DNA from: Bacteroidaceae bacterium
Lineage (GTDB): Bacteria > Bacteroidota > Bacteroidia > Bacteroidales > Bacteroidaceae
Assembly: GCA_017522785.1 (NCBI GenBank)
Contig: JAFWYF010000015.1
Location: forward strand, 124,001-188,000
DNA: 64,000 nt
Direction: 5' to 3'
Part shown: piece by piece, positions 1,600 to 16,437 of the stretch
Numbering within the stretch: position 1 is the first letter of the stretch
Layout of the letters: the number at the start of each line of letters is the position of its first letter
Notes under the pieces: generated by a model
Seen by the model: the letters and a program-made list of their open reading frames with translations, nothing else
Database searches by the model: none
Told to the model about the DNA's origin: nothing
Position numbers and translations under genes: made by a program

Positions 1600-2694
1600 T
1601 TAATCTTTGTACTGGTGTATCTGCGGGGTACGTATACCCGGTTTTAGTTCACCTCCAATATAGAAAATATTCTCATCGTCTCCAATTATCACTGCTCCGG
1701 CACGTGCAAATACGTCATCACTGCATTTCTCATACCATTCTCCATTTGCATCATATATGAGCAGGTATTTATTAAAGGAGTACCATTCTGCTGGTTGATA
1801 CATATATTCCTCTTTGGAAATAATGTTATATCTACCCGATATGGCATCGGCGAAGATATGGCGATTGACACCTCCGGCAACAATAATGCTGTTGTCTATA
1901 TTTGTTGCAACGCCACCCGAAACGGTTATAGTATCTCCATTCACAACAATATGTGGTAAATGGCTCCACTTCTTTTCTTTTATATTATAGCATACTCCGT
2001 CGGTATGAACCATTGCCACTTCTGTACTGTCGTTTGGAGCAAATCCTCCCCAAACAAATATACTCCCATTGTTCGAAGCACACACCGGTTGTACACGTGC
2101 ACGTGAAGGCATTTCTTCAATCATTTCCCAACAGTTGGCTATGCTCAAGTCGAGAGCATATACTCTGTTCGACGCTTTTCCTTCAATATTTCCACCTGCA
2201 ACATATATGACATTGTTTGCTATGCAACCGGATGCATTATCTATTGAGTTGGGTAGTGACGGCAATGTGTCTATTTTGCATCCATTTGAGATATCTATAC
2301 TCAAAACGGTCTTTAGTGATGAATTTTCATTAATTCCACCTATTATATACCATCGTTCGTCCTCTTGAACAGATACTCCGTATGCCGATGCTTCGGGTAG
2401 TGTGCCAACCTGTTCCCACACAAGTGTGTCGGCAAGTGTGGCACGATAAATTCCCTTGTAGTATCTTTTTGTTCCACCTTCGGCAGCCGGTTTATCGGGG
2501 AAATTGCATCCTCCGGCAATGTATAGTGCTCCATCGTACAACGCTGCATAGCATGCCGAGACTCCTTGCTCGTAACCCTCTTCAATGGCAGGCATCCTGC
2601 CTATCTCCTTTAAAAGGCATGCGCTCTCGCGTTTGCCTGTGCAAGCCAAGAGCGCAATACCTATAATGAATAGTGATATTATTTTCTGCATCAC
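1600..2694 (-). CDS. nanM: N-acetylneuraminate mutarotase (kelch-type lipoprotein)
   Basis: Probable sialic-acid mutarotase, which speeds conversion of alpha-Neu5Ac released by sialidase to the beta anomer used downstream. The 364-residue protein has a lipoprotein signal ending at Cys18 (IALLAC). Kelch repeats with GG pairs then build a six-bladed propeller (for example LYIAGGCNFPD, WYIIGGINEN, IYVAGGNIEG, IFVWGGFAPN, IIVAGGVNRH, IFYIGGELKP), as in the cyclically permuted mutarotase family. It is the last gene of the nan operon: its ATG overlaps the stop codon of the transporter gene by four bases, so translation is probably coupled. The role rests on family resemblance and operon position. 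Confidence 0.85.
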   Translation of the reverse strand: MMQKIISLFIIGIALLACTGKRESACLLKEIGRMPAIEEGYEQGVSACYAALYDGALYIAGGCNFPDKPAAEGGTKRYYKGIYRATLADTLVWEQVGTLPEASAYGVSVQEDERWYIIGGINENSSLKTVLSIDISNGCKIDTLPSLPNSIDNASGCIANNVIYVAGGNIEGKASNRVYALDLSIANCWEMIEEMPSRARVQPVCASNNGSIFVWGGFAPNDSTEVAMVHTDGVCYNIKEKKWSHLPHIVVNGDTITVSGGVATNIDNSIIVAGGVNRHIFADAISGRYNIISKEEYMYQPAEWYSFNKYLLIYDANGEWYEKCSDDVFARAGAVIIGDDENIFYIGGELKPGIRTPQIHQYKD

Positions 2695-3956
2695 TCAATA
2701 TTTATTGTTTTAGGACGTAGTGCAATTATCTGTATGAGCAACGAAAGAATGGTTACTCCTCCAAGTAGAGCAAATCCAACTCCAAGCGACAGATTGCCCA
2801 ACATTGTAGTGATGGCGGCACCACCAAGTACACCCGACATGTTTATGAAACCGTATGCAGTAGCACGCTGACGCGACGGAATAAATTGACATAGTATAGG
2901 CATGTTGTTGGTATCGAAAAATCCATAGCCAATACCAAAACATAATATGGCAAGTATCACCGACAGCATGTCGTTTCCAAGTCCCATGAATATTAGTGAA
3001 GGAACTATAAGTGCCAAACCTATGCTGCTTGTGTAAACACGCCCACGAACATTCTTCTGTACCCATTTATCGGATAGATGTCCTCCAATCATTGCTCCAA
3101 TGAACGATGCTCCTGCAAGGCTGATGACGGCAATAGGTCCGGCGTAGTTCATCGCTTCGCCAACATCTATTCCCCAATTGTTGCCTATAACGGTTGCGAG
3201 CAATTCCGGTAACCAGTTTTTTGTTGCCCAACCCGGCATGCTCAATGTGGTAAAGACAAAGAGTACAGCCCAAAAGGCAACATTGCTAAGTACCAATGTG
3301 ATGCTTTTTATAACGCTAGGTTGGTTAATGTTCTTTTCTGCAGTTTCTGCAGGTCTCTTTTCACGTCCGGGGTCGCTGATAAAGAAAATGAGTACAATGG
3401 AGTATAGCATACCAACCAAACCGCAAACAAGAAATACTGTGTGCCAATTGAGCAGTCCCGAGAATATTGAACCGAAACCACCGGCAATCTGACCTAGGTA
3501 TAATCCTGTCATGTGTATACCAATGGCAATGGAACGTGTCTTGCCATTGTGTATATCTGCAATTAGCGAAAGTGCGGCGGGAATGTACAGTGCTTCGCTG
3601 AAACCCATTACTGCGCGCAAAATATAAAGTTCTGTGTATGTGTCTACATATCCCATTAGGAATGTTACAGCCGACCAAATAAACAGGCTCCATACTATAA
3701 GATTCTTTCTGTTAAGACGGTCTGCAATAGCACCTGATACGGGGCTCATCAAACCGTAAATCCACATGAAGGCAGCCATGAGTGCTCCCCATCCCCAAGG
3801 GCCTGTGTAGCTTGTTGCAACCTCTATAATATCCTCTGCCATGGCAAATCTCATCGTACTGAGCATTTGTCGATCCATGTAGTTGAGGAATGCTACACCC
3901 GATAGCAGTACCACTACCAACCAAGGATACCATTTCTTTTCTGTTATCTTGTTCAT
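2691..3956 (-). CDS. nanT: MFS sialic acid transporter (NanT type)
   Basis: Inner-membrane major facilitator superfamily permease of 421 residues with about 12 hydrophobic segments. The MFS loop 2-3 signature is visible as GAIADRLNRKN near residue 85, and FLNYMDRQ in helix 1 is typical of the anion:cation symporter-like branch. The best assignment is Neu5Ac/H+ symport, based on its place between the ManNAc epimerase (19 bases upstream) and the mutarotase (4-base overlap downstream). The nanL-nanE-nanT order matches the sialic-acid operon described in Bacteroides fragilis. Another acid sugar substrate is possible. Confidence 0.85.
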   Translation of the reverse strand: MNKITEKKWYPWLVVVLLSGVAFLNYMDRQMLSTMRFAMAEDIIEVATSYTGPWGWGALMAAFMWIYGLMSPVSGAIADRLNRKNLIVWSLFIWSAVTFLMGYVDTYTELYILRAVMGFSEALYIPAALSLIADIHNGKTRSIAIGIHMTGLYLGQIAGGFGSIFSGLLNWHTVFLVCGLVGMLYSIVLIFFISDPGREKRPAETAEKNINQPSVIKSITLVLSNVAFWAVLFVFTTLSMPGWATKNWLPELLATVIGNNWGIDVGEAMNYAGPIAVISLAGASFIGAMIGGHLSDKWVQKNVRGRVYTSSIGLALIVPSLIFMGLGNDMLSVILAILCFGIGYGFFDTNNMPILCQFIPSRQRATAYGFINMSGVLGGAAITTMLGNLSLGVGFALLGGVTILSLLIQIIALRPKTINIE

Positions 3957-3975
3957 TTTGTGTCTCTTTTTTCTG

Positions 3976-5157
3976 TTACTTTTCTTTTATTAATATATTG
4001 CATAGGTCGTATGACTTTATCATCATACGTGGAATGTGGAAAGGTCCTTTGAATATATTTCCTTTGGCTGGTTGCGCCACCGTTCCATCTCTGTGCAGAT
4101 ATCCATACCACTCGCCATGCAATTCATCGGGGAAATGCGCGTATGTCCACTCGCTTATCTGTTTGTGCCAAATGAGATATTTATCATCGCCAGTTGCTTC
4201 ATAAGCATAAAGTGTTGCAATGATAGCCTCTGTTTGCGGCCACCAGAATTTCATATCTTGCGAGTAGTCCTGTGGTGGCAGGTTGCGACAATCGCGGAAG
4301 TTGATGATTCCGCCATATTGCTTGTCCCATCCCCACTCCCAAGACCAATCGAGAATAGTCAAAGCTTGTTTGGTGAGTTCGGGCTCCCATCCTCGATATT
4401 TTGCCTCTTCGAGCAGGAACCATGCTGTTTCTATACAGTGGCCGGGGTTAATTACACGTCCGTTAATAGTGTCTATGAACTCTCCGTTGGGTCCTACCAT
4501 TTCGAGCAGGGCTTTATACTCGGGCTTCATAAAGTCTTTTAGTGATGCTATCGATTCATCAATCTGTTTGTCGAGTACAGGGTCGCTTATTACGTTACGT
4601 ATACGCGACGCTGTGTTTATCAATATCATCACAAGTGAGTGCCCTTTGGCCTGCAATGAGTCGAGGTATTTAGGCTCCATGTATCCCGGTGTGGAGATAA
4701 ACTTGCGAATATCCTTAAACAGGTCTAATGCTTTCTGTGCATATCTGTTGTCGCCCGATGCTTTTGCATATTCAGCCATTGCAATGGCGGCGAAACTCTC
4801 CGAAAATACATAGCGACGTTTACGCAATGGAGTACCATCGGCCATAACCTCGAAATACATGCGACCATCGCTGTCGAAACAGTGTGCCTCAATGAATTCT
4901 ATTGTGCTTTTTGCCGCTGCAAGCCAATCGGGGTTTTTCTCGATAGTGTTATATGCAAAACTGCACACAAATGCAAAGCGACCTTGAAACCAAACCGATT
5001 TGGTGCTGTCTATCAGCGAACCGTCGCGGTCCAGACAGGTATATATTCCTCCGTTTACTATGTCCAATCCATTCTTTAACCAAAAGGGCATTATATCCTC
5101 GGTGAGCTCCTTGCGATATTTCTCTTGCCACTCTTGTAAATAGTTTTTCCAGTTCAT
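3976..5157 (-). CDS. nanE: N-acylglucosamine/N-acetylmannosamine 2-epimerase
   Basis: Cytoplasmic AGE-family (alpha/alpha)6-barrel enzyme of 393 residues that converts ManNAc, the product of the sialic-acid lyase, into GlcNAc. Characteristic barrel motifs are visible: the NGGIYTCLDRDG start, WFQGRFAFVCSFAYN, GHCIETAWFLLEEAK with its active-site His, and HGEWYGYLHRDG with a second conserved His near the C-terminus. This RenBP-like epimerase replaces the NanE TIM-barrel of enterobacteria, as in other Bacteroidales. It starts 9 bases after the lyase stop codon and precedes nanT in the same operon. No GlcNAc kinase or nagA/nagB is in the window, so the pathway continues elsewhere. Confidence 0.9.
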   Translation of the reverse strand: MNWKNYLQEWQEKYRKELTEDIMPFWLKNGLDIVNGGIYTCLDRDGSLIDSTKSVWFQGRFAFVCSFAYNTIEKNPDWLAAAKSTIEFIEAHCFDSDGRMYFEVMADGTPLRKRRYVFSESFAAIAMAEYAKASGDNRYAQKALDLFKDIRKFISTPGYMEPKYLDSLQAKGHSLVMILINTASRIRNVISDPVLDKQIDESIASLKDFMKPEYKALLEMVGPNGEFIDTINGRVINPGHCIETAWFLLEEAKYRGWEPELTKQALTILDWSWEWGWDKQYGGIINFRDCRNLPPQDYSQDMKFWWPQTEAIIATLYAYEATGDDKYLIWHKQISEWTYAHFPDELHGEWYGYLHRDGTVAQPAKGNIFKGPFHIPRMMIKSYDLCNILIKEK

Positions 5158-5166
5158 AGTGCTAAA

Positions 5167-6084
5167 TTAGAATTTATTGCAACGTTCAAAGAAATTGATT
5201 GCTTCGAGCTCCTTACGCATTGCTGCCTCCTCCTCGTCAGTCATATTCTGGAATGGAGTACGATTCTTGCCAAGGTCTAAACCAATCAGTTTCATGATTC
5301 GCTTACCTCCAACAATGTTTCCACGATAGTGGCAAATGACATTTATTACATCTTGTGAGAAGTTCTGTAGTTCACGTGCCTTCTCCAAGTCGCCGGCGTT
5401 CCAAGCATTAATTATGCCAACAAGGTTACAACCGTTGTAGTTGGTTGTTCCGCCAATACCTCCTTGTGCGCCACCCATGGCAAGACAGGGTAGTATAGTC
5501 TCGTCTTGTCCATGCAACATGTCGAACTTACCATTTTTGTAGAGACGGCATTGGTTGTATTCATACATGCTTTCGAATGTATATTTTATACCTGCAAAAT
5601 TGGGTATGCGACCATCGACTGCCTGCAAGAAACTTACCATAGAAAGATATGCTCCATTAAATGCAGGAATGTGATAGAAATAGAATGGCAGTTCGGGAGC
5701 AGCAGATGCAATCTCTTCGCAATACTTAACCAACTCTTCTACACGATTTACTTTTGGGAAAGGAGGAGCCATGGCGCCAATGCCGAATACTCCCAACTTT
5801 TGTGCATGTTCTGCCATGCGACGGCTCGATTTTACACATGTACTACCTACATGCACGATAATCTTGAAATCTTTAGGCGCCGCCGCTACCCATGCTTCAG
5901 TAAGTTTAATTCTCTCCTCTTCGGTTAGCATATATCCTTCGCCCGACGAACCATTTATAAATACTCCTTTGAGACCATTCTTTGCTAACATCTGAGCGTA
6001 TGCTGGAATTGGTTCGTAATTTACTTCGCCATTCTCATAAAACGGTGTGAAAGGTGCATTGATAAGGCCAAAAATCTTTTCCAT
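5167..6084 (-). CDS. nanL: N-acetylneuraminate lyase
   Basis: Class I aldolase of the DapA/NAL TIM-barrel family that splits Neu5Ac into pyruvate and ManNAc; first gene of the nan operon. GSSGEG near residue 45 is the form of the carboxylate-binding loop found in NAL enzymes rather than in dihydrodipicolinate synthase. YFYHIPAFNG carries the catalytic Tyr, and FAGIKYTFES carries the Schiff-base Lys. I chose the ATG at 6084 (MEKIFG, 305 residues) over the one at 6120, because homologues begin just before GLINAPFTPF and the 12 extra residues look like leader. Two dyads lie upstream (6110-6125, 6133-6152). Confidence 0.92.
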   Translation of the reverse strand: MEKIFGLINAPFTPFYENGEVNYEPIPAYAQMLAKNGLKGVFINGSSGEGYMLTEEERIKLTEAWVAAAPKDFKIIVHVGSTCVKSSRRMAEHAQKLGVFGIGAMAPPFPKVNRVEELVKYCEEIASAAPELPFYFYHIPAFNGAYLSMVSFLQAVDGRIPNFAGIKYTFESMYEYNQCRLYKNGKFDMLHGQDETILPCLAMGGAQGGIGGTTNYNGCNLVGIINAWNAGDLEKARELQNFSQDVINVICHYRGNIVGGKRIMKLIGLDLGKNRTPFQNMTDEEEAAMRKELEAINFFERCNKF

Positions 6085-6109
6085 AATTTTATATATTTTG
6101 TGGTTGATG

Positions 6110-6152
6110 TTCTTTTGCAAAAGAAACTAAAAATATTTGTTTCAGCAAATAT
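6110..6152 (-). promoter_or_regulatory. Two dyad sequences upstream of the nan operon
   Basis: TTCTTTTG|CAAAAGAA (6110-6125) is a perfect 16-base palindrome. ATATTTG (6133-6139) and CAAATAT (6146-6152) form a second dyad. They lie 26-68 bases upstream of the nanL ATG. No full consensus promoter is visible, only CATATTTG and TTCTTTTG near matches, which fits an activator- or repressor-controlled operon (inference). Confidence 0.35.
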
Positions 6153-6948: not shown

Positions 6949-6996
6949 AATAAAATAGAATAGGATGCGAAATTTCGCATCCTATTCTATTTTATT
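6949..6996 (-). terminator. Perfect 48-base palindromic terminator
   Basis: Twenty-four bases (6949-6972) followed directly by their exact complement (6973-6996), 12 bases after the stop codon of the leftward lipoprotein gene. The arms end in A/T-rich tracts suitable for termination in both directions. Confidence 0.85.
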
Positions 6997-7008
6997 ATCG
7001 TATCAATA

Positions 7009-8706
7009 TTATTTTACTGCTATTGATGTTATGTACAATGTTCCTGTAACGCTGAATGTAACACTGTTTGCACTACCATTCCATGTCCCTGAACTGAATG
7101 TACCTGTTTTGGCAGTCATTGTGCTCTTTTTGCCTCCTTCAAATACAATTTCTTTAATCTCACCACCATCCGATTTAGATATTGTGATAGTTGAATTCTT
7201 GTATGTACGAAGTTCAACATCACCTCCTGTTTTTGTCCAAATTCTTACAGGTGTACTAGAACTACCTTGATTAAGATTAATATTTACATTAGAATTTGTG
7301 AATGTTACATCGTCAAATTCAACACCTACTCCTTGTGTCGCTCCGGGCTCAACCTTGCCGGGTGTTACCGATGGTGTCAATGCAACGGGGTTGCTAAAGT
7401 CGAATGTAACAGTTTCTGTTGTGGCGCTATCATCATCTTTGTCATCCTCACCGGGTGTAGTAGGCTCTTCGACATTTCCGCCATCCTCACCGGGTGTAGT
7501 AGGCTCTTCAACATCTCCGCCATCCTCTTCGCCTTCAGCTGCTACAACACTCACAGCCATTGTATTTAGAAATTCATTCCGATTTACTCCAATTGTGTAG
7601 CCTGTTACAACGATTTTTTTGCCATTTAGATTTTCGTCTACCATGCCATCGTGGGGGTAGGCAATGCTACCGATTGCTTTTGAAGCGTCATCGATGTACA
7701 CATTGTAGTAGCCATTGATATTTAGTCTACCTGTGTATTGTACAAATTCAATAGTGGGTGTAGATAAATAATTATCCATGTCGCTACCATTCCAAACTGT
7801 AGGCTCGCTCTCACTTACGGTTGCTGTACCTGTCTTTTCGACGGTAGATGAATTGCCGAACTGCAACATTCCTGCATACATGCTGGTTGTTCCGCTTACA
7901 GTTACCACATCACCTACAACATAGTCTTCGTTCTCACCAAGGCCAAGGTAAACTAATATGGTTGCGGTTGCATCCTTAACCAAGAATCCACGAGAGTATG
8001 TAGCAATAATTGTACCGGAAATTTTTGCATCACATGCTCCTGCATTTATAACGGTGCTAATCTCTGTAATTGCTTCGGGGTCGATAGATGGAGCTTCACT
8101 CTCAATAATTCCGCCATCAATTGTTTTAAATGTAATGTCGTCTACAAGAATAGATGCGCCTTCGCCTCTCTTGTTGTTCATGATAATTAGAGAAACTTCG
8201 GTCTCCTCATTGACAGTGAACTCTGCTGTAACCTCCTCCCACTCATTAGATACACTTGCTGCGCTAATTAGATATACATAGTCGTTCTCTGTATCGGCAA
8301 CGCTTCCATTGGTGAGTTTTGCATAACCTATGTTATATTTTCCGGCAGTTTCGCCACTCTGTTTTAAAAATGCTCCTATCTGATATGTGCCGGGTTGCAA
8401 AAAATAACTCTTGGATGCAAAGCGTTTGTTACCATTGCTGTTACCCTTAATTAAAACAGCACTTGTACCTGAATAGGCATCATTCGACTGCTCTACTTCG
8501 CAGTTTGTTACACCAAGACACCAATTTTGGGGTTTACCATTTTTCCATGTCTCCAAATCGTTGTTTGGGAGAAGGTTTTCACCAAACTCAGTGCCACCTT
8601 CATCAACTCCTCCTCCGGGAATGGGGTATGGAGCCGGAACATCTTCACATGCATTGAACATGAATGTTGACAATGCTACAAGAAATAGATTTCTTAAGAA
8701 TTTCAT
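7009..8706 (-). CDS. Surface lipoprotein with choice-of-anchor and OB-fold-like domains
   Basis: A 565-residue lipoprotein. The signal peptide ends at Cys20 (MFNAC), and the acidic residues right after it (EDVP) resemble the Bacteroidota surface-export signal. Residues about 40-200 look like a beta-sandwich carbohydrate/anchor module (NLLPNNDLETW, then YFLQPGTYQIGAFLKQSG). Residues about 210-390 resemble an OB-fold (ISGTIIATYSRGFLVKDAT, VGDVVTVSGT). A Pro/Glu/Gly-rich linker made of two 13-residue repeats follows, then a C-terminal beta domain (TVTFDFSNP onward). It is the last of three leftward genes with the DUF5689 lipoprotein and the TonB-dependent receptor. A role in nucleic-acid binding at the surface is inferred only from the OB-like region and the divergent nuclease gene. 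Confidence 0.75.
   Translation of the reverse strand: MKFLRNLFLVALSTFMFNACEDVPAPYPIPGGGVDEGGTEFGENLLPNNDLETWKNGKPQNWCLGVTNCEVEQSNDAYSGTSAVLIKGNSNGNKRFASKSYFLQPGTYQIGAFLKQSGETAGKYNIGYAKLTNGSVADTENDYVYLISAASVSNEWEEVTAEFTVNEETEVSLIIMNNKRGEGASILVDDITFKTIDGGIIESEAPSIDPEAITEISTVINAGACDAKISGTIIATYSRGFLVKDATATILVYLGLGENEDYVVGDVVTVSGTTSMYAGMLQFGNSSTVEKTGTATVSESEPTVWNGSDMDNYLSTPTIEFVQYTGRLNINGYYNVYIDDASKAIGSIAYPHDGMVDENLNGKKIVVTGYTIGVNRNEFLNTMAVSVVAAEGEEDGGDVEEPTTPGEDGGNVEEPTTPGEDDKDDDSATTETVTFDFSNPVALTPSVTPGKVEPGATQGVGVEFDDVTFTNSNVNINLNQGSSSTPVRIWTKTGGDVELRTYKNSTITISKSDGGEIKEIVFEGGKKSTMTAKTGTFSSGTWNGSANSVTFSVTGTLYITSIAVK
7443..7527. repeat. Tandem 39-base repeat in a lipoprotein linker
   Basis: Two near-identical 39-base units (7443-7481, 7482-7520; differences only near the end of each unit) and the first 7 bases of a third. 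They stay in frame and encode a repeated GEDGG-VEEPTTP linker, so copy number could vary without breaking the gene. Confidence 0.85.
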
Positions 8707-8739
8707 AGTATGTATGTTTTTATTGTTTTTATTTCTGTT

Positions 8740-9621
8740 TTATTCTGCTTTTATCATGTCGTCTGTCGATGTTAGCATGAACTGCCAAACATCGTTGCTA
8801 TCGCTGTTGCTGCCGGGGTTGCGGTATCTTGTAAGAACTCCGTAGATATCAAACTTGCCTTTGGGAATTACGGTGTTTGCGAAATCGGCATATGTGCTCA
8901 TGCGGAACAGTACCTTGTGATTGCCAACATATACGTTGCGCTCGACAGCTGTGTTGGTTTCGCTAATTTGCTCCTCTTCGGGCGCAAAAAGTCTTCTGCC
9001 ATCGGCCTCTTTAAACGATACGCCTTTTAGTACAGCATATATTGGTGCCGAATCCTTATTAGTCTTGTTATCTAGGAATTCTTCTGTTACCTCTAATGGG
9101 GTAAGTTCCTCTTGATTGGTATTAGGTTCTCCAACAATTCTCATGTGGTCTCTGAACTCTTTTTTCGACATACGACCAATCTGGTATTCGGAATACTTTG
9201 CGTTATAGTATTTGATTCCAATTTGTGCAAGACTGCCATATCCGCCAATGAATAAATCTTTGCAACTGATTCTTATACGTTGTCCAATGGGCAGTGTAGC
9301 ATATATACCAACATCGTTCACTCCAATGATGATTGCTCCTGTGGCATCGTTTATAACAATTTGTTTGTAGACATTGCCTGTTTCGTCATTGGCTACTACA
9401 ACACCTTCGATGACAATATCGTCGGTAAATTGTTCATATCCGTTGGACTTAATTGTAGATGCATATTTTACCTTCAAATCTTTGATGGTTGTTGTGGCTT
9501 CTCCAATGTTGTTGTTTCCAATGGGTGGAAACTCCAATGTGGGGTCATCGAAGTTGTTCATGCATGCTGTTGTAGCAAATAGGGATATTGCTAATATAAA
9601 CAGATATTTTATAGTTTTCAT
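8740..9621 (-). CDS. DUF5689 surface lipoprotein
   Basis: A 293-residue lipoprotein with signal peptide ending at Cys20 (FATTAC), followed by an Asn/Asp-rich tether. The body matches the DUF5689 pattern. It has an OB-fold-like core opening DIVIEGVVVANDETGNVYKQIVINDATGAI with the later GQRIRISCKDLFIGGYG segment, then a second half with FRMSTYADFANTVIP and GKFDIYGVLTRYR. DUF5689 proteins are regularly found next to a TonB receptor and an EEP-type nuclease in Bacteroidales. It sits 19 bases after the receptor gene and 33 bases before the OB-like lipoprotein, so the three are probably one operon. Its ligand is unknown. Confidence 0.8.
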   Translation of the reverse strand: MKTIKYLFILAISLFATTACMNNFDDPTLEFPPIGNNNIGEATTTIKDLKVKYASTIKSNGYEQFTDDIVIEGVVVANDETGNVYKQIVINDATGAIIIGVNDVGIYATLPIGQRIRISCKDLFIGGYGSLAQIGIKYYNAKYSEYQIGRMSKKEFRDHMRIVGEPNTNQEELTPLEVTEEFLDNKTNKDSAPIYAVLKGVSFKEADGRRLFAPEEEQISETNTAVERNVYVGNHKVLFRMSTYADFANTVIPKGKFDIYGVLTRYRNPGSNSDSNDVWQFMLTSTDDMIKAE

Positions 9622-9640
9622 ACTTTAATTATTTACATTG

Positions 9641-12280
9641 TTAGAAACGAAGGCCTATATTCAAATATGCGTTGAACGCACTTGCATAGTACAAGAATGG
9701 GTTTTTAGAGAATTTGTATGTTCTATCTTCTCCATCGGAATATTTGTTGTTACGGTTTTGCTCATAACCACCTGTAATCATATTCTCATTGTTTAGAACG
9801 TTGTTGAGCATTAGGTTGATGTTCAAACGTTTGCCACCTCTCAAATTTATGCTCTTTCCTATAGATGCGTCTACCATGAAGCCTCCTTTTCCTTTGAATT
9901 GCGATGGACGTTGTATTTCGGTAACAGTCTCTCCATCGGAACCAATGCCTTCTGTGAGGTTGCCATTTATCTTTAATGTTTCACCAAGACGTGCATAGGG
10001 CGATGCACTGATATATACGCGGTCGTAGTAGTTCACGCTTGCGTTCAGGTACCATCCTTTGATGTTGTAATCTACACCCAAACTCAATGCTGTCAAAGGT
10101 GTTCCATTAATATGTGCTCCTCTCATATACACTTTGTCTTCTGTAGGTTTTGTGTCGCTTTCGCTTATAAAAGAACCATCAACATCGTTCATGTACTCTG
10201 CATTGCCAATGCTACCTACAAAATTGAATGATAGAGATGATGTTGCGTTGTATACAACGGCCAATTCTGCTCCGTAGTGCTGTTTCTCAATACCATTCAT
10301 TGTGAGATATGTAAATTGATTCTCGTTGTCGTTGTAGAATGCCGATAGTTGCACAGCGTTGCTAATCAATGTGTAATATCCGCTAAGTTTAGCCGTTATG
10401 GGGCCATATGCGAAACGGTATGAAATTTCTTGGTTCCATATTCTTTCATTGGTAAGGCCACTGACAAAGTCATTGCGAACACGAGGTGCTATGAATGAGT
10501 TGGCTGCAAGAGGAGCATTCTCCTGAAGACCAAAGCCTGCAGAAATAGTGTTGTTGCCATCGATGTTCCAGTTGAAACCGATTTTTCCACCTCCGCTAAG
10601 GAATTTTGCTGTGCCACTGCTACCTTTTGAATAGTGAACTGCACGACCATTACGCATGTTTCCGTAACGCTCAATTGTAGTTCCTTCGATGTTTGCACCT
10701 GCGTAGAAGAAGAATCCGTCGATATTATGTGTGAATTGTCCGAATAGGTTTGCCTTGTTTACATTAATATCATAGTCGTAGTTGAATACATCACCTTTTT
10801 TGATAATACGATTAGGATTATCAACGTCGTTCATAACCTGTATGTCGTTTATACCAAAATCGCCAATGGAGAACTTGTCAATATCCAATCCATAACTATT
10901 TGAACCTAGCAGGTCGTCGAGGGTCTTGTAGTGCATGCCTTTTGTTGTACCTACATTTATACCTACCATAAATTTGTTGTTCTTGTCTATTTCGTGGTTC
11001 AATACAGAACTTAGGTTAATAGCCATCTGGTCGTTATGACGTTTTTCGATATAGTACAAAGCATCAATACCCGAAGCATTTGCTTGTCTGTTAGCAAAGT
11101 AAAGCTGGTCCCAATTAATCTGACGGTTGCTTTTGCTTGCTTTCCAATAGTTGTAGCTCTCTTGCCAATTTGCAAGCTCATCATCTGTAGGCTCGTAGTT
11201 AAGGTCCCAAACATCGAATTCGGCACTAGGAAGGTTCTTATAATAGTTTGGACGTGGGTCGGCGGCATTACCATTCCAGCCCAATGCTGTTGTTGCATAG
11301 TTTGAATATTTTCCGGCAACCGACGTGGTGAGTTTGGTCTCACGATCTATTTGCCAATCCCATGTGAACAGAACTGTAGGCTCAAATGAAGTAACTACAC
11401 GAGAATTGCGTTTTTCGCCATTCTGGTATCCCCAATAAGGGTTGTAGTAGTGGCTGTTTGCAAGCCAATATGCCTCTTCTGTTGCTGCACCTTGCTGGCC
11501 ACGTTCTGTGGGTGAGCCCCAAGTGGTAATAGAAATAGAGTGGTTGTCATTAATAACTTTTTGCGCGCTCAAGAAATAACCGAATGAGTTGTAGAATGTT
11601 CCTTCAATAACTCCTTCGTTGGCCCAACGGTACGATGCTGAGCCTGTCAAAGCCCAACCGTTATTCATTAATCCTGTTGAATAGGTGTACATTACGCGGG
11701 CTAGGTAGTTACGGTTGCAACCAACAAGTGATAACTTGTGTCCGGCTGCATATTGGCTGGCGCGAGTGTTTATATTGCTTGCTCCACCTATGTTGCTATA
11801 ACCAAAACTGTTGTTCTCCAAGTAGGTTGCACCCTCTTTGTTACGTGTAGCATCGTTCAAACCACCAATCATACCAAAACTGAATGTGCCACGCTCGGCA
11901 TCGTTCATCAACACACCATTCATGTATACATTGTTGTATTGGTTTTCGTATGCTCTAATTCTAAATCTCATTGGGCTGAACAAGTAACCAACTTCCGATA
12001 GGAAATAGTCGTCGTTTGATGAAACCATTGATGATGAACCTTGTATCAGGTCCTCGTCATCATCCAACTGACCTTCGGAAAAGGTAAATGAGTCTTTGTC
12101 ATCATTAGATGCCTGTAACATCTCATTATACTCTCCCAACAACACTGTGTCTTGGGCAAAGCGTAACATGGGATCTCTTTTAATCTCTTTGTTAAGCTTC
12201 ATTTCTTCTTGTGCACTTACTCCTATTGCACTCATGCAACAAAATAGTAATAATGCAAACTTGTTAAAAATGCTTTTCAT
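9641..12280 (-). CDS. TonB-dependent outer-membrane receptor
   Basis: An 879-residue outer-membrane receptor. A signal peptide (cleaved after GVSA) is followed by about 75 acidic residues, a compact plug-like region (SEVGYLFSPMRFRIRAYENQYNNVYMNG is its core) and a long beta-barrel with repeated aromatic-ended strands. The last strand ends in LNIGLRF, the usual C-terminal Phe signature for Bam insertion. It lacks the N-terminal carboxypeptidase-regulatory-like domain of SusC proteins and has no SusD partner. Instead it heads an operon with two OB-fold-like lipoproteins and faces a secreted nuclease gene, so the cargo may be nucleic-acid derived (inference). Confidence 0.88.
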   Translation of the reverse strand: MKSIFNKFALLLFCCMSAIGVSAQEEMKLNKEIKRDPMLRFAQDTVLLGEYNEMLQASNDDKDSFTFSEGQLDDDEDLIQGSSSMVSSNDDYFLSEVGYLFSPMRFRIRAYENQYNNVYMNGVLMNDAERGTFSFGMIGGLNDATRNKEGATYLENNSFGYSNIGGASNINTRASQYAAGHKLSLVGCNRNYLARVMYTYSTGLMNNGWALTGSASYRWANEGVIEGTFYNSFGYFLSAQKVINDNHSISITTWGSPTERGQQGAATEEAYWLANSHYYNPYWGYQNGEKRNSRVVTSFEPTVLFTWDWQIDRETKLTTSVAGKYSNYATTALGWNGNAADPRPNYYKNLPSAEFDVWDLNYEPTDDELANWQESYNYWKASKSNRQINWDQLYFANRQANASGIDALYYIEKRHNDQMAINLSSVLNHEIDKNNKFMVGINVGTTKGMHYKTLDDLLGSNSYGLDIDKFSIGDFGINDIQVMNDVDNPNRIIKKGDVFNYDYDINVNKANLFGQFTHNIDGFFFYAGANIEGTTIERYGNMRNGRAVHYSKGSSGTAKFLSGGGKIGFNWNIDGNNTISAGFGLQENAPLAANSFIAPRVRNDFVSGLTNERIWNQEISYRFAYGPITAKLSGYYTLISNAVQLSAFYNDNENQFTYLTMNGIEKQHYGAELAVVYNATSSLSFNFVGSIGNAEYMNDVDGSFISESDTKPTEDKVYMRGAHINGTPLTALSLGVDYNIKGWYLNASVNYYDRVYISASPYARLGETLKINGNLTEGIGSDGETVTEIQRPSQFKGKGGFMVDASIGKSINLRGGKRLNINLMLNNVLNNENMITGGYEQNRNNKYSDGEDRTYKFSKNPFLYYASAFNAYLNIGLRF

Positions 12281-12553
12281 ATTAATATTATTAAATTTTA
12301 GTCTCTTTTACCGGTGTCTATTTCAGGCGGTTTTTAAAACGACCTACAAAATTGGTAAAATATAATGATATTATAAAATTAAAAATTGTTTTTTTTACGA
12401 AAAAATAAAGTAATTGTATGTATTGCGAAAAAATTATTTCATAACCCTGATTATGCAATATTTTTTTCTTAATTTTACGCAATAAATGTCTTATATGTGC
12501 TATTGTGGCGCGTAAAACATTTAAAATGTTGAGTTTAAATTTATATCTGTTAC

Positions 12554-13597
12554 ATGAAAAGAAATTTTATTTTTCTACTTTTTATATCTCTTTTCTCCAT
12601 GTCGTTTTTGCTAACGGCGCAAGAAAAGCGATACGAGGTTTATAGTGTAGGCTTTTATAACCTCGAAAATTTGTTCGATACTATTCACGACGCAGGAAAA
12701 AATGATTTTGAGTTTCTTCCTCAAGGCGTAAACAAGTGGGGTAGTATGAAATATGTCAATAAATTAAAAAATATGGCGACAGTGCTTCGTGAAATGTCTA
12801 CCGATTTATTACCAATGGGCTTGGCTGCTGTAGGTGTTTCCGAAATAGAAAACAGTCGTGTTTTGAGCGATTTGGTTTCTCATGAGATTCTGGCCGACCG
12901 TAAATGGGATTTTATACATCACGAAGGCCCCGATAAGCGTGGAGTAGATTGTGCTTTGCTATACAATCCAAAATTGTTTAAACCAATCACAAGCAGATTG
13001 GTCCCTTATACAACTGTAGATAATGATACTACATATAAAACACGTGGCTTTCTTACAGTCAGTGGCGAAATGGCTGGTGAAATAGTTCACATAATAGTAA
13101 ATCATTGGCCATCGCGTTATGCGAAATCTCCGGCTCGTGAACGTGCCGGTGTATTGGTTAAAGCGGTAAAAGATTCTCTCATGGCTGCCAACCCATTGTC
13201 AAAAGTAATAATAATGGGAGACATGAATGATGACCCAGATGACAAAAGCATGAAAACTTGTCTGGGTGCTGTTCGTGAACAAAATCAGGTAAAAAAATCT
13301 AGCGATTTATATAATCCATGGTGGAATATATTGCGTAAAAAGGGTGTGGGAACTCTTAAATATCGCGGAAAATGGAATCTATTCGACCAAATTATAATTA
13401 GTGGAAATTTATTGGGTAAAGACCGTTCTTCGCTTAAATTATATAAACCCGAGATATTCTCCCGCAGTTATATGCTACAGCAAGAGGGTAAGTATAAAGG
13501 TTCCCCAAAACGAACTCATGCAAGTGGTGTTTGGCTAAATGGCTACAGCGACCACTTACCCGTTATAGTTTATCTAATTAAGGAGCAGAAACAATGA
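12554..13597 (+). CDS. Secreted endonuclease/exonuclease/phosphatase family protein
   Basis: A 347-residue EEP-fold hydrolase with an N-terminal signal sequence (hydrophobic to SFLLTAQ). Catalytic signatures of DNase I-like enzymes are visible: a metal-binding Glu in AVGVSEIENSRVL, HHEGPDKRGVDCALLYNP, the His in IVNHWPSR, GDMNDDPDD (GDxN motif) and SDHLPVIV near the end (SDH motif). It is expected to cut phosphodiester bonds outside the cytoplasm in a Mg-dependent way. It is divergent from the TonB receptor operon, 273 bases away, and a terminator overlaps its stop codon. DNase, RNase and phosphatase substrates cannot be separated by sequence. Confidence 0.88.
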   Translation: MKRNFIFLLFISLFSMSFLLTAQEKRYEVYSVGFYNLENLFDTIHDAGKNDFEFLPQGVNKWGSMKYVNKLKNMATVLREMSTDLLPMGLAAVGVSEIENSRVLSDLVSHEILADRKWDFIHHEGPDKRGVDCALLYNPKLFKPITSRLVPYTTVDNDTTYKTRGFLTVSGEMAGEIVHIIVNHWPSRYAKSPARERAGVLVKAVKDSLMAANPLSKVIIMGDMNDDPDDKSMKTCLGAVREQNQVKKSSDLYNPWWNILRKKGVGTLKYRGKWNLFDQIIISGNLLGKDRSSLKLYKPEIFSRSYMLQQEGKYKGSPKRTHASGVWLNGYSDHLPVIVYLIKEQKQ

Positions 13598-14007: not shown

Positions 14008-14637
14008 TCAAATTTGTAAATCATTCTCTCTGTTACTATAGAAGTACTCTTCTATCTCCTTGAGCCACATTTTACGTTTTTCGACGCCAACACGTTTCAC
14101 CATATCCAATTTAATCCATTTGCAATTCTCTATGCCAATAACTTTGAATGTGCCTTCATACAGTGCTCTCCAAATGGCATTACCAAAAATGGTTTCATAG
14201 ACATTGGACGGTGTCTCCATTGTACTGATGACTGTAACACGTCGCAATTTTTTAAGTAGCGATTTCATGCTGCCATCTTCATCGTAATTGTATGCAATCT
14301 CGGGAAATATTACTTTGTCTATAAATCCTTTTGTAAGGGCCGGCATAAGCATCCACCATGTTGGGAAAATGAATACAAGGTGCTCGGCTTTTTCCAAACG
14401 CTCTTTGTACTCAATGACTTTTTTGTCCAACATGCCGAGTGCACGTTGTGCATCGTTACGTGCTAATCCAAATGCTTTAAGGTCGTTACTACTCATGACA
14501 GGGTCGAAACCCTCTTTGTCCAAATGTATCAAATCGACCTCTCCATTACTACGTTCTATGCCTAATATAACAGCATCTAAAATGGCATTGCAATAACTAC
14601 CATCGTAGGGGTGATTAAATATAACCAATGTTCTCAT
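14008..14637 (-). CDS. Flavodoxin-fold NAD(P)H oxidoreductase
   Basis: A 209-residue cytoplasmic FMN/FAD enzyme of the Flavodoxin_2 (NQO1/KefF/MdaB-like) family. The N-terminal strand and phosphate loop read LVIFNHPYDGSYCNAILDAV. The flavin-contacting segment LVFIFPTWWMLMPALTKGFIDKV (near residue 90) is the hallmark of the family. It would reduce quinones or nitro/azo compounds by two electrons; the exact substrate is unknown. The first five codons are half of a 16-base inverted repeat whose other arm lies upstream, so read-through mRNA from the phosphate transporter gene would fold over its start codon. Confidence 0.82.
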   Translation of the reverse strand: MRTLVIFNHPYDGSYCNAILDAVILGIERSNGEVDLIHLDKEGFDPVMSSNDLKAFGLARNDAQRALGMLDKKVIEYKERLEKAEHLVFIFPTWWMLMPALTKGFIDKVIFPEIAYNYDEDGSMKSLLKKLRRVTVISTMETPSNVYETIFGNAIWRALYEGTFKVIGIENCKWIKLDMVKRVGVEKRKMWLKEIEEYFYSNRENDLQI

Positions 14638-14680
14638 ACCAAACGTTTTATTTATAAACGTAGATATGAGAACATTGGTT
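14623..14680. repeat. 16-base inverted repeat covering a start codon
   Basis: AACCAATGTTCTCATA (14623-14638) and its exact complement (14665-14680) with 26 bases between. The left arm contains the ATG and codons 2-5 of the flavodoxin-fold gene. An AACGTTTG near-match to the -7 element lies in the loop on the minus strand. Confidence 0.8.
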
Positions 14681-14709
14681 CACTAAATCTTGCTTTCTAT
14701 ATAAATGGA

Positions 14710-16437
14710 TTAACTTATCGCTTTATTGTTTACAGCCTCGGATACATTAATTATATAGTCGCCCATGTGCTCCAGTTCTGTAATGATATCTATGTAGTAA
14801 ACACTGCTTTGGTAGCTTGAACTGTTTTGTTCTATCTTCAATATCTCCTCTTCGCGTAATGTGTTACGCATATTGTTAATCTCAATTTCACAATCTACTG
14901 CATGGCGTAAATCGATGCTCTCTCCCGGCTGTTTCTTTAGGTTCTCAATCATTGCATCGTATGCTTTATCGACCAATTCTATCATGGCATCAATCTTTTC
15001 GACATTCTTGTCTGTGAAACGTTTACCATGTATGTTGCGTCGCGATAATATTCTGCTTATAGATTCTCCTGAATCTCCTAAACTCTCCAACTCGTTTATT
15101 ATTTTGTACATAGTCTTTGTTTGCGTCAATGTGGTATCGCTTATACTCTCTTTGGGAATAGAGTTTAGGAACGATGCTATTTCGTACTCGATGCGGTCGG
15201 CAATTTCCTCGTATTTTACAAGTTTTTTACGATATGTCTCAAATTCATCATCGGTTTGGCTGTGTATAGCCGATTTTATATATCCAAGTCCGTTGCGAGA
15301 AATTTGTGCAAAGTGGATAATCTCATTTTTAGCTTGTCCAATAGCTAGTTCTGCATTACCTACAGGGCCGGCATTTATAAACTTGAGTTTGAATCCTTCC
15401 TCTTCGCTTTGTGGTTTCGACTTAATTGCAAATGTAACAGCCTTCACAATTAGTGGAGTGCACCAAACAAGAATACAGGTATTAATTACATTGAACATTG
15501 TATGCAACATTGATATTCCATATAATGCCGCTGTCGATTCGTTGGAACCACTTACTATGTTTGTGGTGTATACAATATTGGTGGGGTTGGGATAGCCCAT
15601 GAGTGTAATAATCCAACCGATAAATTCCAAAAATAGATGGAAGAATAGTAAAGCCCATATAACACCGAAAATATTGAACAATGTGTGTGCCAATGCTGCA
15701 CGGCGGGCATTTGTGTTACCAACGGCTGCTGCAATGTTGGCTGTTATTGTTGTTCCTATGTTCTCTCCAAGTACCATAGCTGCAGCCATCTCAAATGGTA
15801 ACCATCCCATGCTCAACATAATTAATGTAAGGGCCATAGTAGCACTTGATGATTGAAGTACAAGTGTTAGAACAGTACCAAATACAAGAAATATTATAAC
15901 AGAACCAAATCCATATCCGGTCCATTGGGTGATAAAAGAGAGCACTTCGGGCATCTCACGTAAATCGGGTACTGAGTCTTTCATCATGGCCAATCCAAGG
16001 AATAGCAGTGAGAAACCAATGATAAACTCGCTAAGATTTCTATATTTCTCCTTTTTTGCAATACTCATAACAAAACCTATTGCCATGAGTGGCACTGCAA
16101 GTACCGATATATCCATCTTGAAACCGAGCCAAGAAACAAGCCATGCAGTAACAGTTGTTCCTATGTTTGCTCCCATAATTACACCAATGGCTTGTGTCAG
16201 TGTCAGTAGTCCGGCATTAACGAAACCTACTACCATGACAGTGGTTGCACTCGACGATTGTATTACTCCTGTAATACCTACACCGGTCATTACTCTTTTA
16301 AACGTGTTCGAGGTCATTGCTGCAAGAAGATTACGCATGCGGTCTCCGGCTACTTTTTGGAGTCCCGAACTCATAATATTCATTCCATATAGGAACATTC
16401 CAAGTGCTCCTATAAGTGTTAAAACTTGTAGTATCAT
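14710..16437 (-). CDS. Na/Pi cotransporter family protein with PhoU-like C-terminus
   Basis: A 575-residue inner-membrane phosphate transporter. Two inverted Na/Pi-cotransport repeats are visible by their QSSSAT motifs: GVIQSSSATTVMVVGFV near residue 60 and LVLQSSSATMALTLIML near residue 200, each followed by a GANIGTT or GENIGTT motif. Residues about 350-575 form a helical PhoU-like domain. The family imports phosphate with sodium (type II); the C-terminal domain probably regulates this. It stands alone, upstream of the flavodoxin-fold gene on the same strand and 73 bases from it; that gap contains the inverted repeat. Confidence 0.9.
   Translation of the reverse strand: MILQVLTLIGALGMFLYGMNIMSSGLQKVAGDRMRNLLAAMTSNTFKRVMTGVGITGVIQSSSATTVMVVGFVNAGLLTLTQAIGVIMGANIGTTVTAWLVSWLGFKMDISVLAVPLMAIGFVMSIAKKEKYRNLSEFIIGFSLLFLGLAMMKDSVPDLREMPEVLSFITQWTGYGFGSVIIFLVFGTVLTLVLQSSSATMALTLIMLSMGWLPFEMAAAMVLGENIGTTITANIAAAVGNTNARRAALAHTLFNIFGVIWALLFFHLFLEFIGWIITLMGYPNPTNIVYTTNIVSGSNESTAALYGISMLHTMFNVINTCILVWCTPLIVKAVTFAIKSKPQSEEEGFKLKFINAGPVGNAELAIGQAKNEIIHFAQISRNGLGYIKSAIHSQTDDEFETYRKKLVKYEEIADRIEYEIASFLNSIPKESISDTTLTQTKTMYKIINELESLGDSGESISRILSRRNIHGKRFTDKNVEKIDAMIELVDKAYDAMIENLKKQPGESIDLRHAVDCEIEINNMRNTLREEEILKIEQNSSSYQSSVYYIDIITELEHMGDYIINVSEAVNNKAIS

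What the first reader, a model, noticed from the sequence alone, without database searches (positions are those of the whole stretch)
7009..13597. TonB receptor, two OB-fold-like surface lipoproteins and a secreted EEP nuclease: possible nucleic-acid scavenging locus
The receptor has no SusD partner and lacks the SusC-type N-terminal domain. The two lipoproteins both contain OB-like segments, a fold that often binds nucleic acids, and the divergent gene encodes an exported DNase I-like enzyme with all catalytic motifs. The gene set recurs in Bacteroidales, but I know of no described function. Capture, cutting and uptake of extracellular DNA or nucleotides would explain it.
Basis: inference. 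Interest (0 to 1): 0.62.

Follow-up and report, generated by a model that had tools for sequence, protein, structure and literature searches.

The report
Probable outer-membrane DNA-uptake locus
These genes are the Bacteroidales counterparts of two genes that a related bacterium needs to take up DNA from its surroundings, so this gut-type bacterium probably carries a DNA-import machine in its outer membrane that does not depend on pili.

Summary
The four genes are real and correctly placed: EEP nuclease (12554-13597 +), divergent from an operon of a TonB-dependent receptor (TBDT), a DUF5689 lipoprotein and a second lipoprotein. The TBDT and DUF5689 genes are homologues of RA0C_RS04915 and RA0C_RS04920 of Riemerella anatipestifer, whose markerless deletions abolish natural transformation (PMC8459023). 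I located the Riemerella locus through a published comEC primer. It has the same EEP-divergent-TBDT-DUF5689 layout, about 2 kb from comEC. The Riemerella TBDT has a single hit in the window's genome, the window TBDT. Strong TBDT and DUF5689 hits fall in exactly the same 39 of 61 sampled genomes of the class, and TBDT in 0 of 186 outside it. Among 80 loci picked by TBDT alone, DUF5689 follows in 79 (1 cut off) and the divergent EEP is present in 67 of 74 with room. The DUF5689 model (pLDDT 93) resembles OB-fold proteins, including tandem-OB DNA binders. Best reading: an outer-membrane DNA importer serving transformation, perhaps also nutrition. Against it: no periplasmic HHH protein found, acidic lipoproteins, no functional test in Bacteroidales.

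The parts
12554..13597 (+). EEP (DNase I-like) nuclease with signal peptide, divergent gene; probably periplasmic
   Evidence: PF19580 6e-103; motif residues N36, E97, H184, D223, N225, D278, D333, H334 in 99 of 99 aligned module EEPs and D132 in 98 of 99; only PF19580 gene in the genome
12281..12553 (.). Divergent intergenic region, presumably holding both promoters
   Evidence: between the two start codons; TAnnTTTG Bacteroidota -7 motif (motif recalled) not found on either strand; sigma-70 scan no better than chance over the region
9641..12280 (-). TonB-dependent receptor, homologue of Riemerella RA0C_RS04915; proposed outer-membrane DNA channel
   Evidence: no Pfam hit alone; Plug in 7 of 25 and CarbopepD_reg_2 in 18 of 25 orthologues; single hit of the Riemerella TBDT in own genome, 30% identity, 1.2e-76
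8740..9621 (-). DUF5689 lipoprotein (C20), homologue of the N-terminal part of RA0C_RS04920; tandem OB-like, proposed surface DNA binder
   Evidence: PF18942 9e-54; NF052645 105.6 bits, below its cut-off of 475; model pLDDT 93; fold matches
7009..8706 (-). Second lipoprotein (C20): CBM4/16/22-like jelly roll 43-197, possible OB domain about 205-392, C-terminal beta domain about 430-565
   Evidence: CBM_4_9 1e-4, under cut-off; fold of 43-197; OB part weak
6949..6996 (.). Perfect 48-bp palindrome, probable terminator at the operon end

Best explanation
The locus encodes an outer-membrane DNA-import module used in natural transformation, of the kind needed by Riemerella anatipestifer. Proposed path: the surface DUF5689 lipoprotein (tandem OB folds), helped by the second lipoprotein, holds extracellular DNA and sits on the TBDT. 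TonB energy moves the DNA through the receptor into the periplasm. The EEP nuclease nicks, trims or degrades the incoming duplex there. ComEC then takes one strand across the inner membrane and DprA/RecA handle it. Shown: homology, gene order, co-occurrence, catalytic residues, the OB-like fold of DUF5689 (predicted), and ComEC and DprA in the same genome. Published for Riemerella: both outer-membrane genes are essential, and tonB mutants transform less. Inferred: DNA as the ligand, threading through the receptor, the EEP's place in the path, and that this organism transforms at all.
For: Markerless deletion of RA0C_RS04915 (TBDT-like) or RA0C_RS04920 (DUF5689+DUF5017) brings transformation below detection (PMC8459023). 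tonBA and tonBB mutants transform less (PMC8383284, passages). The Riemerella locus was located by an exact match of a published ATCC 11845 comEC primer (2 of 283 family genomes). Its gene order comEC-2 genes-EEP/TBDT-DUF5689 fits the published locus-tag order, which makes the EEP RS04910, and its DUF5689+DUF5017 domains match the paper. The Riemerella TBDT has one hit in the window's genome at E<=1e-5. TBDT and strong DUF5689 occur in the same 39 of 61 class genomes. Synteny: DUF5689 in 79 of 79 with room, divergent EEP in 67 of 74 with room. ComEC and DprA are present and no PilB/PilT-type ATPase was found in the own genome. The DUF5689 model matches CST, HIN-200 and RADX and the LysRS OB domain at Z 9.4, rmsd 3.8, 117 aligned.
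Against: No ComEA-like helix-hairpin-helix protein was found in the own genome: the two HHH_3 hits are Tex- and DnaE-like, whereas the Riemerella HHH gene is essential. The DUF5689 lipoprotein is acidic (pI 4.9, net charge -10), as is lipo2 (pI 4.2), unlike the positively charged HIN surface. comEC and dprA queries found nothing near the module in the other loci, although the DprA query was probably a wrong ORF. ComEC is nearly universal (243 of 247), so its presence discriminates nothing. The EEP was not among the genes hit in the Riemerella screen. Flavobacterium johnsoniae did not transform under the conditions tried although PMC8459023 states it has all the homologues. The Riemerella lipoprotein scores over the cut-off of the M949_1556 family, named after a gene reported to affect antigenicity and pathogenicity (title in a reference list), so other surface effects are possible.
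Confidence: 0.6

Rival explanations
1. Nutritional DNA scavenging: the same parts capture and import extracellular DNA or large fragments for phosphate, purines or carbon, with the EEP digesting it; recombination is incidental.
For: Same anatomy. A review states that P. gingivalis, a competent Bacteroidales, may scavenge DNA as a nutrient (PMC5907639, passages). EEP conserved with the module. A Na/Pi cotransporter gene lies nearby in the window.
Against: Both Riemerella genes are essential for transformation itself. The Na/Pi gene is not conserved beside the module. No nucleoside transporter or phosphatase was recognised among the neighbours scanned. Usually single copy: 8 of 161 Bacteroidales genomes with a match have more than one.
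Confidence: 0.22
2. A receptor-lipoprotein system for another ligand (glycan, glycoconjugate or protein): the CBM-like lipo2 suggests carbohydrate binding, and loss of transformation in Riemerella would be indirect, through the cell surface.
For: lipo2 residues 43-197 match carbohydrate-binding modules, best Z 15.8, rmsd 2.1, 134 aligned. OB folds can bind oligosaccharides. The M949_1556-family gene was reported to affect antigenicity (title only). DUF5689 is acidic.
Against: No SusD and no glycan-degrading gene directly beside the module among the proteins scanned. The constant partner is a nuclease-family enzyme with all motif residues. Deletions of the two Riemerella genes drop transformation below detection, while the screen's partial mutants drop about 10- to 2000-fold.
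Confidence: 0.13
3. The EEP is not part of the machine: its divergent position is historical and it acts as a phosphatase or phosphodiesterase elsewhere. This can be true together with the best explanation.
For: Missing within reach in 7 of 74 TBDT-selected loci with room, absent beside three further class loci (L081, L092, L094), and not hit in the Riemerella screen. EEP enzymes include lipid phosphodiesterases (recalled).
Against: Divergent in 67 of 74 Bacteroidales loci and in Flavobacteriia-type loci and Riemerella; co-directional directly upstream in 3 loci.
Confidence: 0.3

Closest known systems
Riemerella anatipestifer RA0C_RS04915/RA0C_RS04920 transformation genes (PMC8459023)
   Same: Homologous TBDT and DUF5689 lipoprotein in the same order with a divergent EEP gene; ComEC and DprA in the genome
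   Different: Riemerella has one lipoprotein (DUF5689+DUF5017) and a CarboxypepD_reg domain on the receptor, lies near comEC and has a separate essential HHH protein. The window has two lipoproteins, no receptor N-terminal domain, its comEC about 50 kb before the window start, and no HHH protein found
SusCD nutrient uptake systems
   Same: TonB-dependent receptor plus surface lipoprotein
   Different: No SusD; no hydrolase set; conserved nuclease-family partner; different lipoprotein fold
Type IV pilus/ComEA competence of proteobacteria
   Same: ComEC and DprA downstream
   Different: No PilB/PilT-type ATPase match and no ComEA-like HHH protein in the own genome
HIN-200 domains (AIM2, IFI16, p202)
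   Same: Tandem OB folds with a helical linker
   Different: Low TM scores (about 0.3-0.35 of the query), 7-13% identity, and an acidic rather than basic protein; fold resemblance only

Membership tests
Riemerella-type outer-membrane transformation module | Orthologous TBDT (RS04915) | tested here: met
Riemerella-type outer-membrane transformation module | DUF5689 lipoprotein directly downstream (RS04920) | tested here: met
Riemerella-type outer-membrane transformation module | DUF5017/choice-of-anchor-J domain fused to DUF5689 | tested here: not met
   window DUF5689 protein has none; lipo2 jelly roll not related to it by hhalign, probability 0.3%. Whether this is defining is open: many Bacteroidales carry split forms and L075 carries a DUF5689-DUF6359-DUF5017 fusion
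Riemerella-type outer-membrane transformation module | ComEC and DprA in the genome | tested here: met
Riemerella-type outer-membrane transformation module | Periplasmic HHH DNA-binding protein (RS02645) | tested here: not met
   only Tex- and DnaE-like HHH_3 hits in a 98.6% complete draft
Riemerella-type outer-membrane transformation module | Required for natural transformation | not testable with these tools
   needs a deletion strain
NCBIfam NF052645 lipo_M949_1556 | Score over curated cut-off 475 | tested here: not met
   105.6 bits; the Riemerella protein scores 599.3
SusCD system | SusD partner next to SusC | tested here: not met
EEP superfamily, Exo_endo_phos_3 | Profile match and catalytic residues | tested here: met
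ExeM/NucH extracellular DNase | NF033681 match | tested here: not met
   no match for the window EEP at E<=0.01; Riemerella EEP 22.2 bits against cut-off 300
Type IV pilus competence | PilB/PilT-type ATPase (PF00437) | tested here: not met
   no match at E<=0.001 in own genome
Tandem-OB DNA binder, HIN-200-like fold | Two OB folds with helical linker | tested here: inconclusive
   Foldseek E 3.9e-4, probability 0.99, but TMq about 0.3; VIA-align rows cover mainly residues 26-176; the two halves are not similar in sequence

The most novel reading that the evidence does not exclude
A TonB-dependent receptor is itself the outer-membrane DNA translocon: in much of class Bacteroidia a TBDT, a tandem-OB surface lipoprotein and a periplasmic EEP nuclease form the standard DNA-import machine in place of type IV pili, so that roughly half of Bacteroidales, including many gut and oral species, carry the outer-membrane part of competence.
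Probability: 0.38. Interest if true: 0.85.

Novelty: new variant of a known kind. Interest (0 to 1): 0.6.

Why it matters
How Bacteroidota without type IV pili bring DNA across the outer membrane is not established. A TBDT as DNA gate would be a new kind of cargo for that receptor class. The module gives named, testable genes for competence in gut and oral Bacteroidales, where gene exchange is usually credited to conjugation, and it offers a candidate for the unidentified nuclease step of the Riemerella model.

Tried and rejected
SusCD/PUL: rejected, no SusD. Anti-phage defence: no PADLOC match for any of the four proteins. Solved relatives by sequence: none credible for the four proteins (one chance-level hit at E 0.3 for P0002). 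Relation of the lipo2 jelly roll to the C-terminal domain of RS04920: not found. Sequence similarity between the two halves of DUF5689: none. Linkage of comEC or dprA to the module elsewhere: none found, but the DprA query there was the longest ORF of L187 and is probably not DprA, so that half is uninformative; comEC was tested with a partial Riemerella protein. Conserved promoter motif: none found. ExeM/NucH for the EEP: not met. In the fold searches the absence of a family proves nothing; residues 177-293 of DUF5689 and everything outside 39-198 of lipo2 were barely tested by VIA-align. Literature: DUF5689 occurs in one paper; DUF6359, PF18942, PF19886 and PF19580 in none; searches for natural transformation with Bacteroidota or Bacteroidetes and TonB terms gave nothing; the search with Bacteroides gave the Riemerella paper and an unrelated one. 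Most subscription papers and all preprints are outside that library.
Full report
What is there. Four intact genes occupy 7009-13597. On the minus strand, a TonB-dependent receptor (879 aa), a DUF5689 lipoprotein (293 aa) and a second lipoprotein (565 aa) follow each other with 19- and 33-bp gaps. A perfect 48-bp palindrome at 6949-6996 lies just past the operon end. Divergent from it, 273 bp away, is an EEP enzyme of PF19580 (E 6e-103). Both lipoproteins have a cysteine at position 20 in a lipobox-like context. The TBDT alone hits no Pfam family, but 7 of 25 aligned family members hit Plug and 18 of 25 hit CarbopepD_reg_2. The window's receptor lacks that N-terminal domain. No SusD was found among the ten proteins scanned.

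A described function exists. The only paper in the held library that names DUF5689 is a transposon screen for natural transformation in Riemerella anatipestifer (PMC8459023: Results part 1, distribution section and Discussion read; other passages). Markerless deletions of RA0C_RS04915, a TBDT-like outer-membrane protein, and RA0C_RS04920, DUF5689+DUF5017, abolish transformation. Other essential genes are comEC, dprA, comF, recA, an HHH protein and a DUF1343 protein. The authors propose that RS04920 binds DNA and RS04915 carries it in, and leave the nuclease unidentified. They report RS04915 homologues only in Flavobacteriaceae. A companion paper finds lower transformation in tonBA and tonBB mutants, with iron effects confounding tonBB (PMC8383284, passages).

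Same locus, checked directly. An exact match of the published ATCC 11845 comEC primer was found in 2 of 283 genomes of the family searched, both in one genus. Their DNA holds recA, comEC, two genes, the EEP and, divergently, TBDT and DUF5689. The order fits the published locus tags, which makes the EEP RS04910. The lipoprotein carries DUF5689 and DUF5017, as published. Its score of 599 bits passes NCBIfam NF052645, lipo_M949_1556. The window TBDT matches the Riemerella one at 1.3e-79, and the Riemerella TBDT has a single hit in the window's genome at E<=1e-5, the window TBDT at 30% identity. The own genome has one DUF5689 and one PF19580 gene.

Distribution. In 247 genomes of the phylum sample, 61 belong to the window's class. 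Strong TBDT hits (over 530 bits) and strong DUF5689 hits (over 115 bits) fall in exactly the same 39 of these 61 (sets compared). Outside the class the best TBDT score is 273 bits, that is 0 of 186 strong. Weaker DUF5689 hits occur in many other genomes (114 of 247 in all), mostly in larger proteins, so DUF5689 alone is no marker. In one genome (G017) the two genes lie on different contigs, and in one (G222) the TBDT carries stops. In Bacteroidales 161 of 296 genomes match at E<=1e-100, of which 150 at E<1e-200 by my count from the table; 8 of the 161 have more than one match. ComEC is in 243 of 247, so its presence says little. PilB/PilT/GspE-type ATPases (PF00437, E<1e-25, counted by eye) are in 8 of 61 class genomes, all with the TBDT, and in 122 of 186 outside; the own genome has none at E<=0.001. 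This contrast follows phylogeny and is suggestive only.

Synteny. Of 80 loci drawn from named genomes by TBDT alone (the best 80 of 589), 79 have DUF5689 just downstream and one is cut off. A divergent EEP is present in 67 of the 74 with enough upstream sequence; 7 lack it within 3 kb. The DUF5689 and EEP profiles were built from other loci. A cruder count over 125 loci, including those picked by DUF5689, gave 93 with DUF5689 and divergent EEP, 3 with EEP co-directional, 14 without EEP, 7 cut off upstream, 4 with other partial states and 4 without the TBDT, two of these being Riemerella flank pieces. Named carriers include Paraprevotella clara, Prevotella denticola, Hoylesella timonensis and Segatella albensis. 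The nearest relatives are Bacteroidaceae MAGs from ruminants, which suggests a herbivore-gut origin for the window (inference). The window's flanking genes are not conserved beside the module outside close relatives.

Folds. The DUF5689 model (68 sequences, pLDDT 93, pTM 0.87) is mostly beta with helices between two halves. Foldseek's best PDB matches are OB-fold nucleic-acid binders: CST (E 1.6e-4), HIN-200 domains of p202, p204 and IFI16 (E from 3.9e-4, probability up to 0.99) and RADX. VIA-align puts residues 26-176 on the OB domain of LysRS (Z 9.4, rmsd 3.8, 117 aligned). TM scores are low (0.2-0.35 of the query), so this shows a fold class, not a relative. HIN domains are two OB folds that grip the dsDNA backbone through a positive surface (PMC7830601, passages). 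The DUF5689 protein is acidic (pI 4.9), which argues against the same chemistry. For lipo2, only residues 43-197 are confident over a long stretch: a carbohydrate-binding-module jelly roll, best Z 15.8, rmsd 2.1, 134 aligned. Its middle part resembles DUF5689 weakly (hhalign probability 6.9%). Homologues carry DUF6359, and one also an OB hit at 5.6e-4. One Bacteroidales protein fuses DUF5689, DUF6359 and DUF5017 (L075), which suggests that separate lipoproteins elsewhere act together.

EEP. All DNase I-type motif residues are kept in 99 of 99 module EEPs, except D132 (98). The enzyme is basic (pI 9.3 here, 9.2 in Riemerella). With a signal sequence and no room for a sorting domain it is likely periplasmic. 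It is a candidate for the unassigned duplex-processing step, but no mutant is reported in the sections read.

Mechanism and doubts. The best reading is an outer-membrane DNA importer feeding ComEC and DprA. The main results against it: no ComEA-like HHH protein in a 98.6% complete draft, although the Riemerella HHH gene is essential; acidic lipoproteins; a Flavobacterium with the homologues that did not transform under the conditions tried; a reported antigenicity effect of the M949_1556 gene (title only). P. gingivalis shows that Bacteroidales can be competent and may also use DNA as food (PMC5907639, passages), so the two purposes need not exclude each other. Whether P. gingivalis has this module was not tested.

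Noticed in passing
window 2691-6120: MFS transporter, 393-aa protein (looks like an acylglucosamine 2-epimerase, by eye) and a DHDPS/N-acetylneuraminate-lyase-like gene: a possible sialic-acid catabolism cluster next to the module.
   Followed up: no
L075:9474-11156: One polypeptide carries DUF5689, DUF6359 and DUF5017, a fusion of parts that are separate lipoproteins in other Bacteroidales.
   Followed up: partly
L066:6127-9186 and L067:6363-9422: Same-genus TBDT orthologues with about 100 extra residues at the N-terminus that are not a CarboxypepD_reg domain by eye.
   Followed up: no
G222:C19:401291-404102: TBDT of this module interrupted by stop codons in one genome that keeps DUF5689.
   Followed up: no
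L104:1-8734: In Riemerella the module's EEP lies about 2 kb from comEC, a linkage not seen in the other loci with a partial comEC query.
   Followed up: partly
window 14008-16437: Flavodoxin-like NAD(P)H oxidoreductase and Na/Pi cotransporter beside the EEP; neither is conserved next to the module in other loci.
   Followed up: yes
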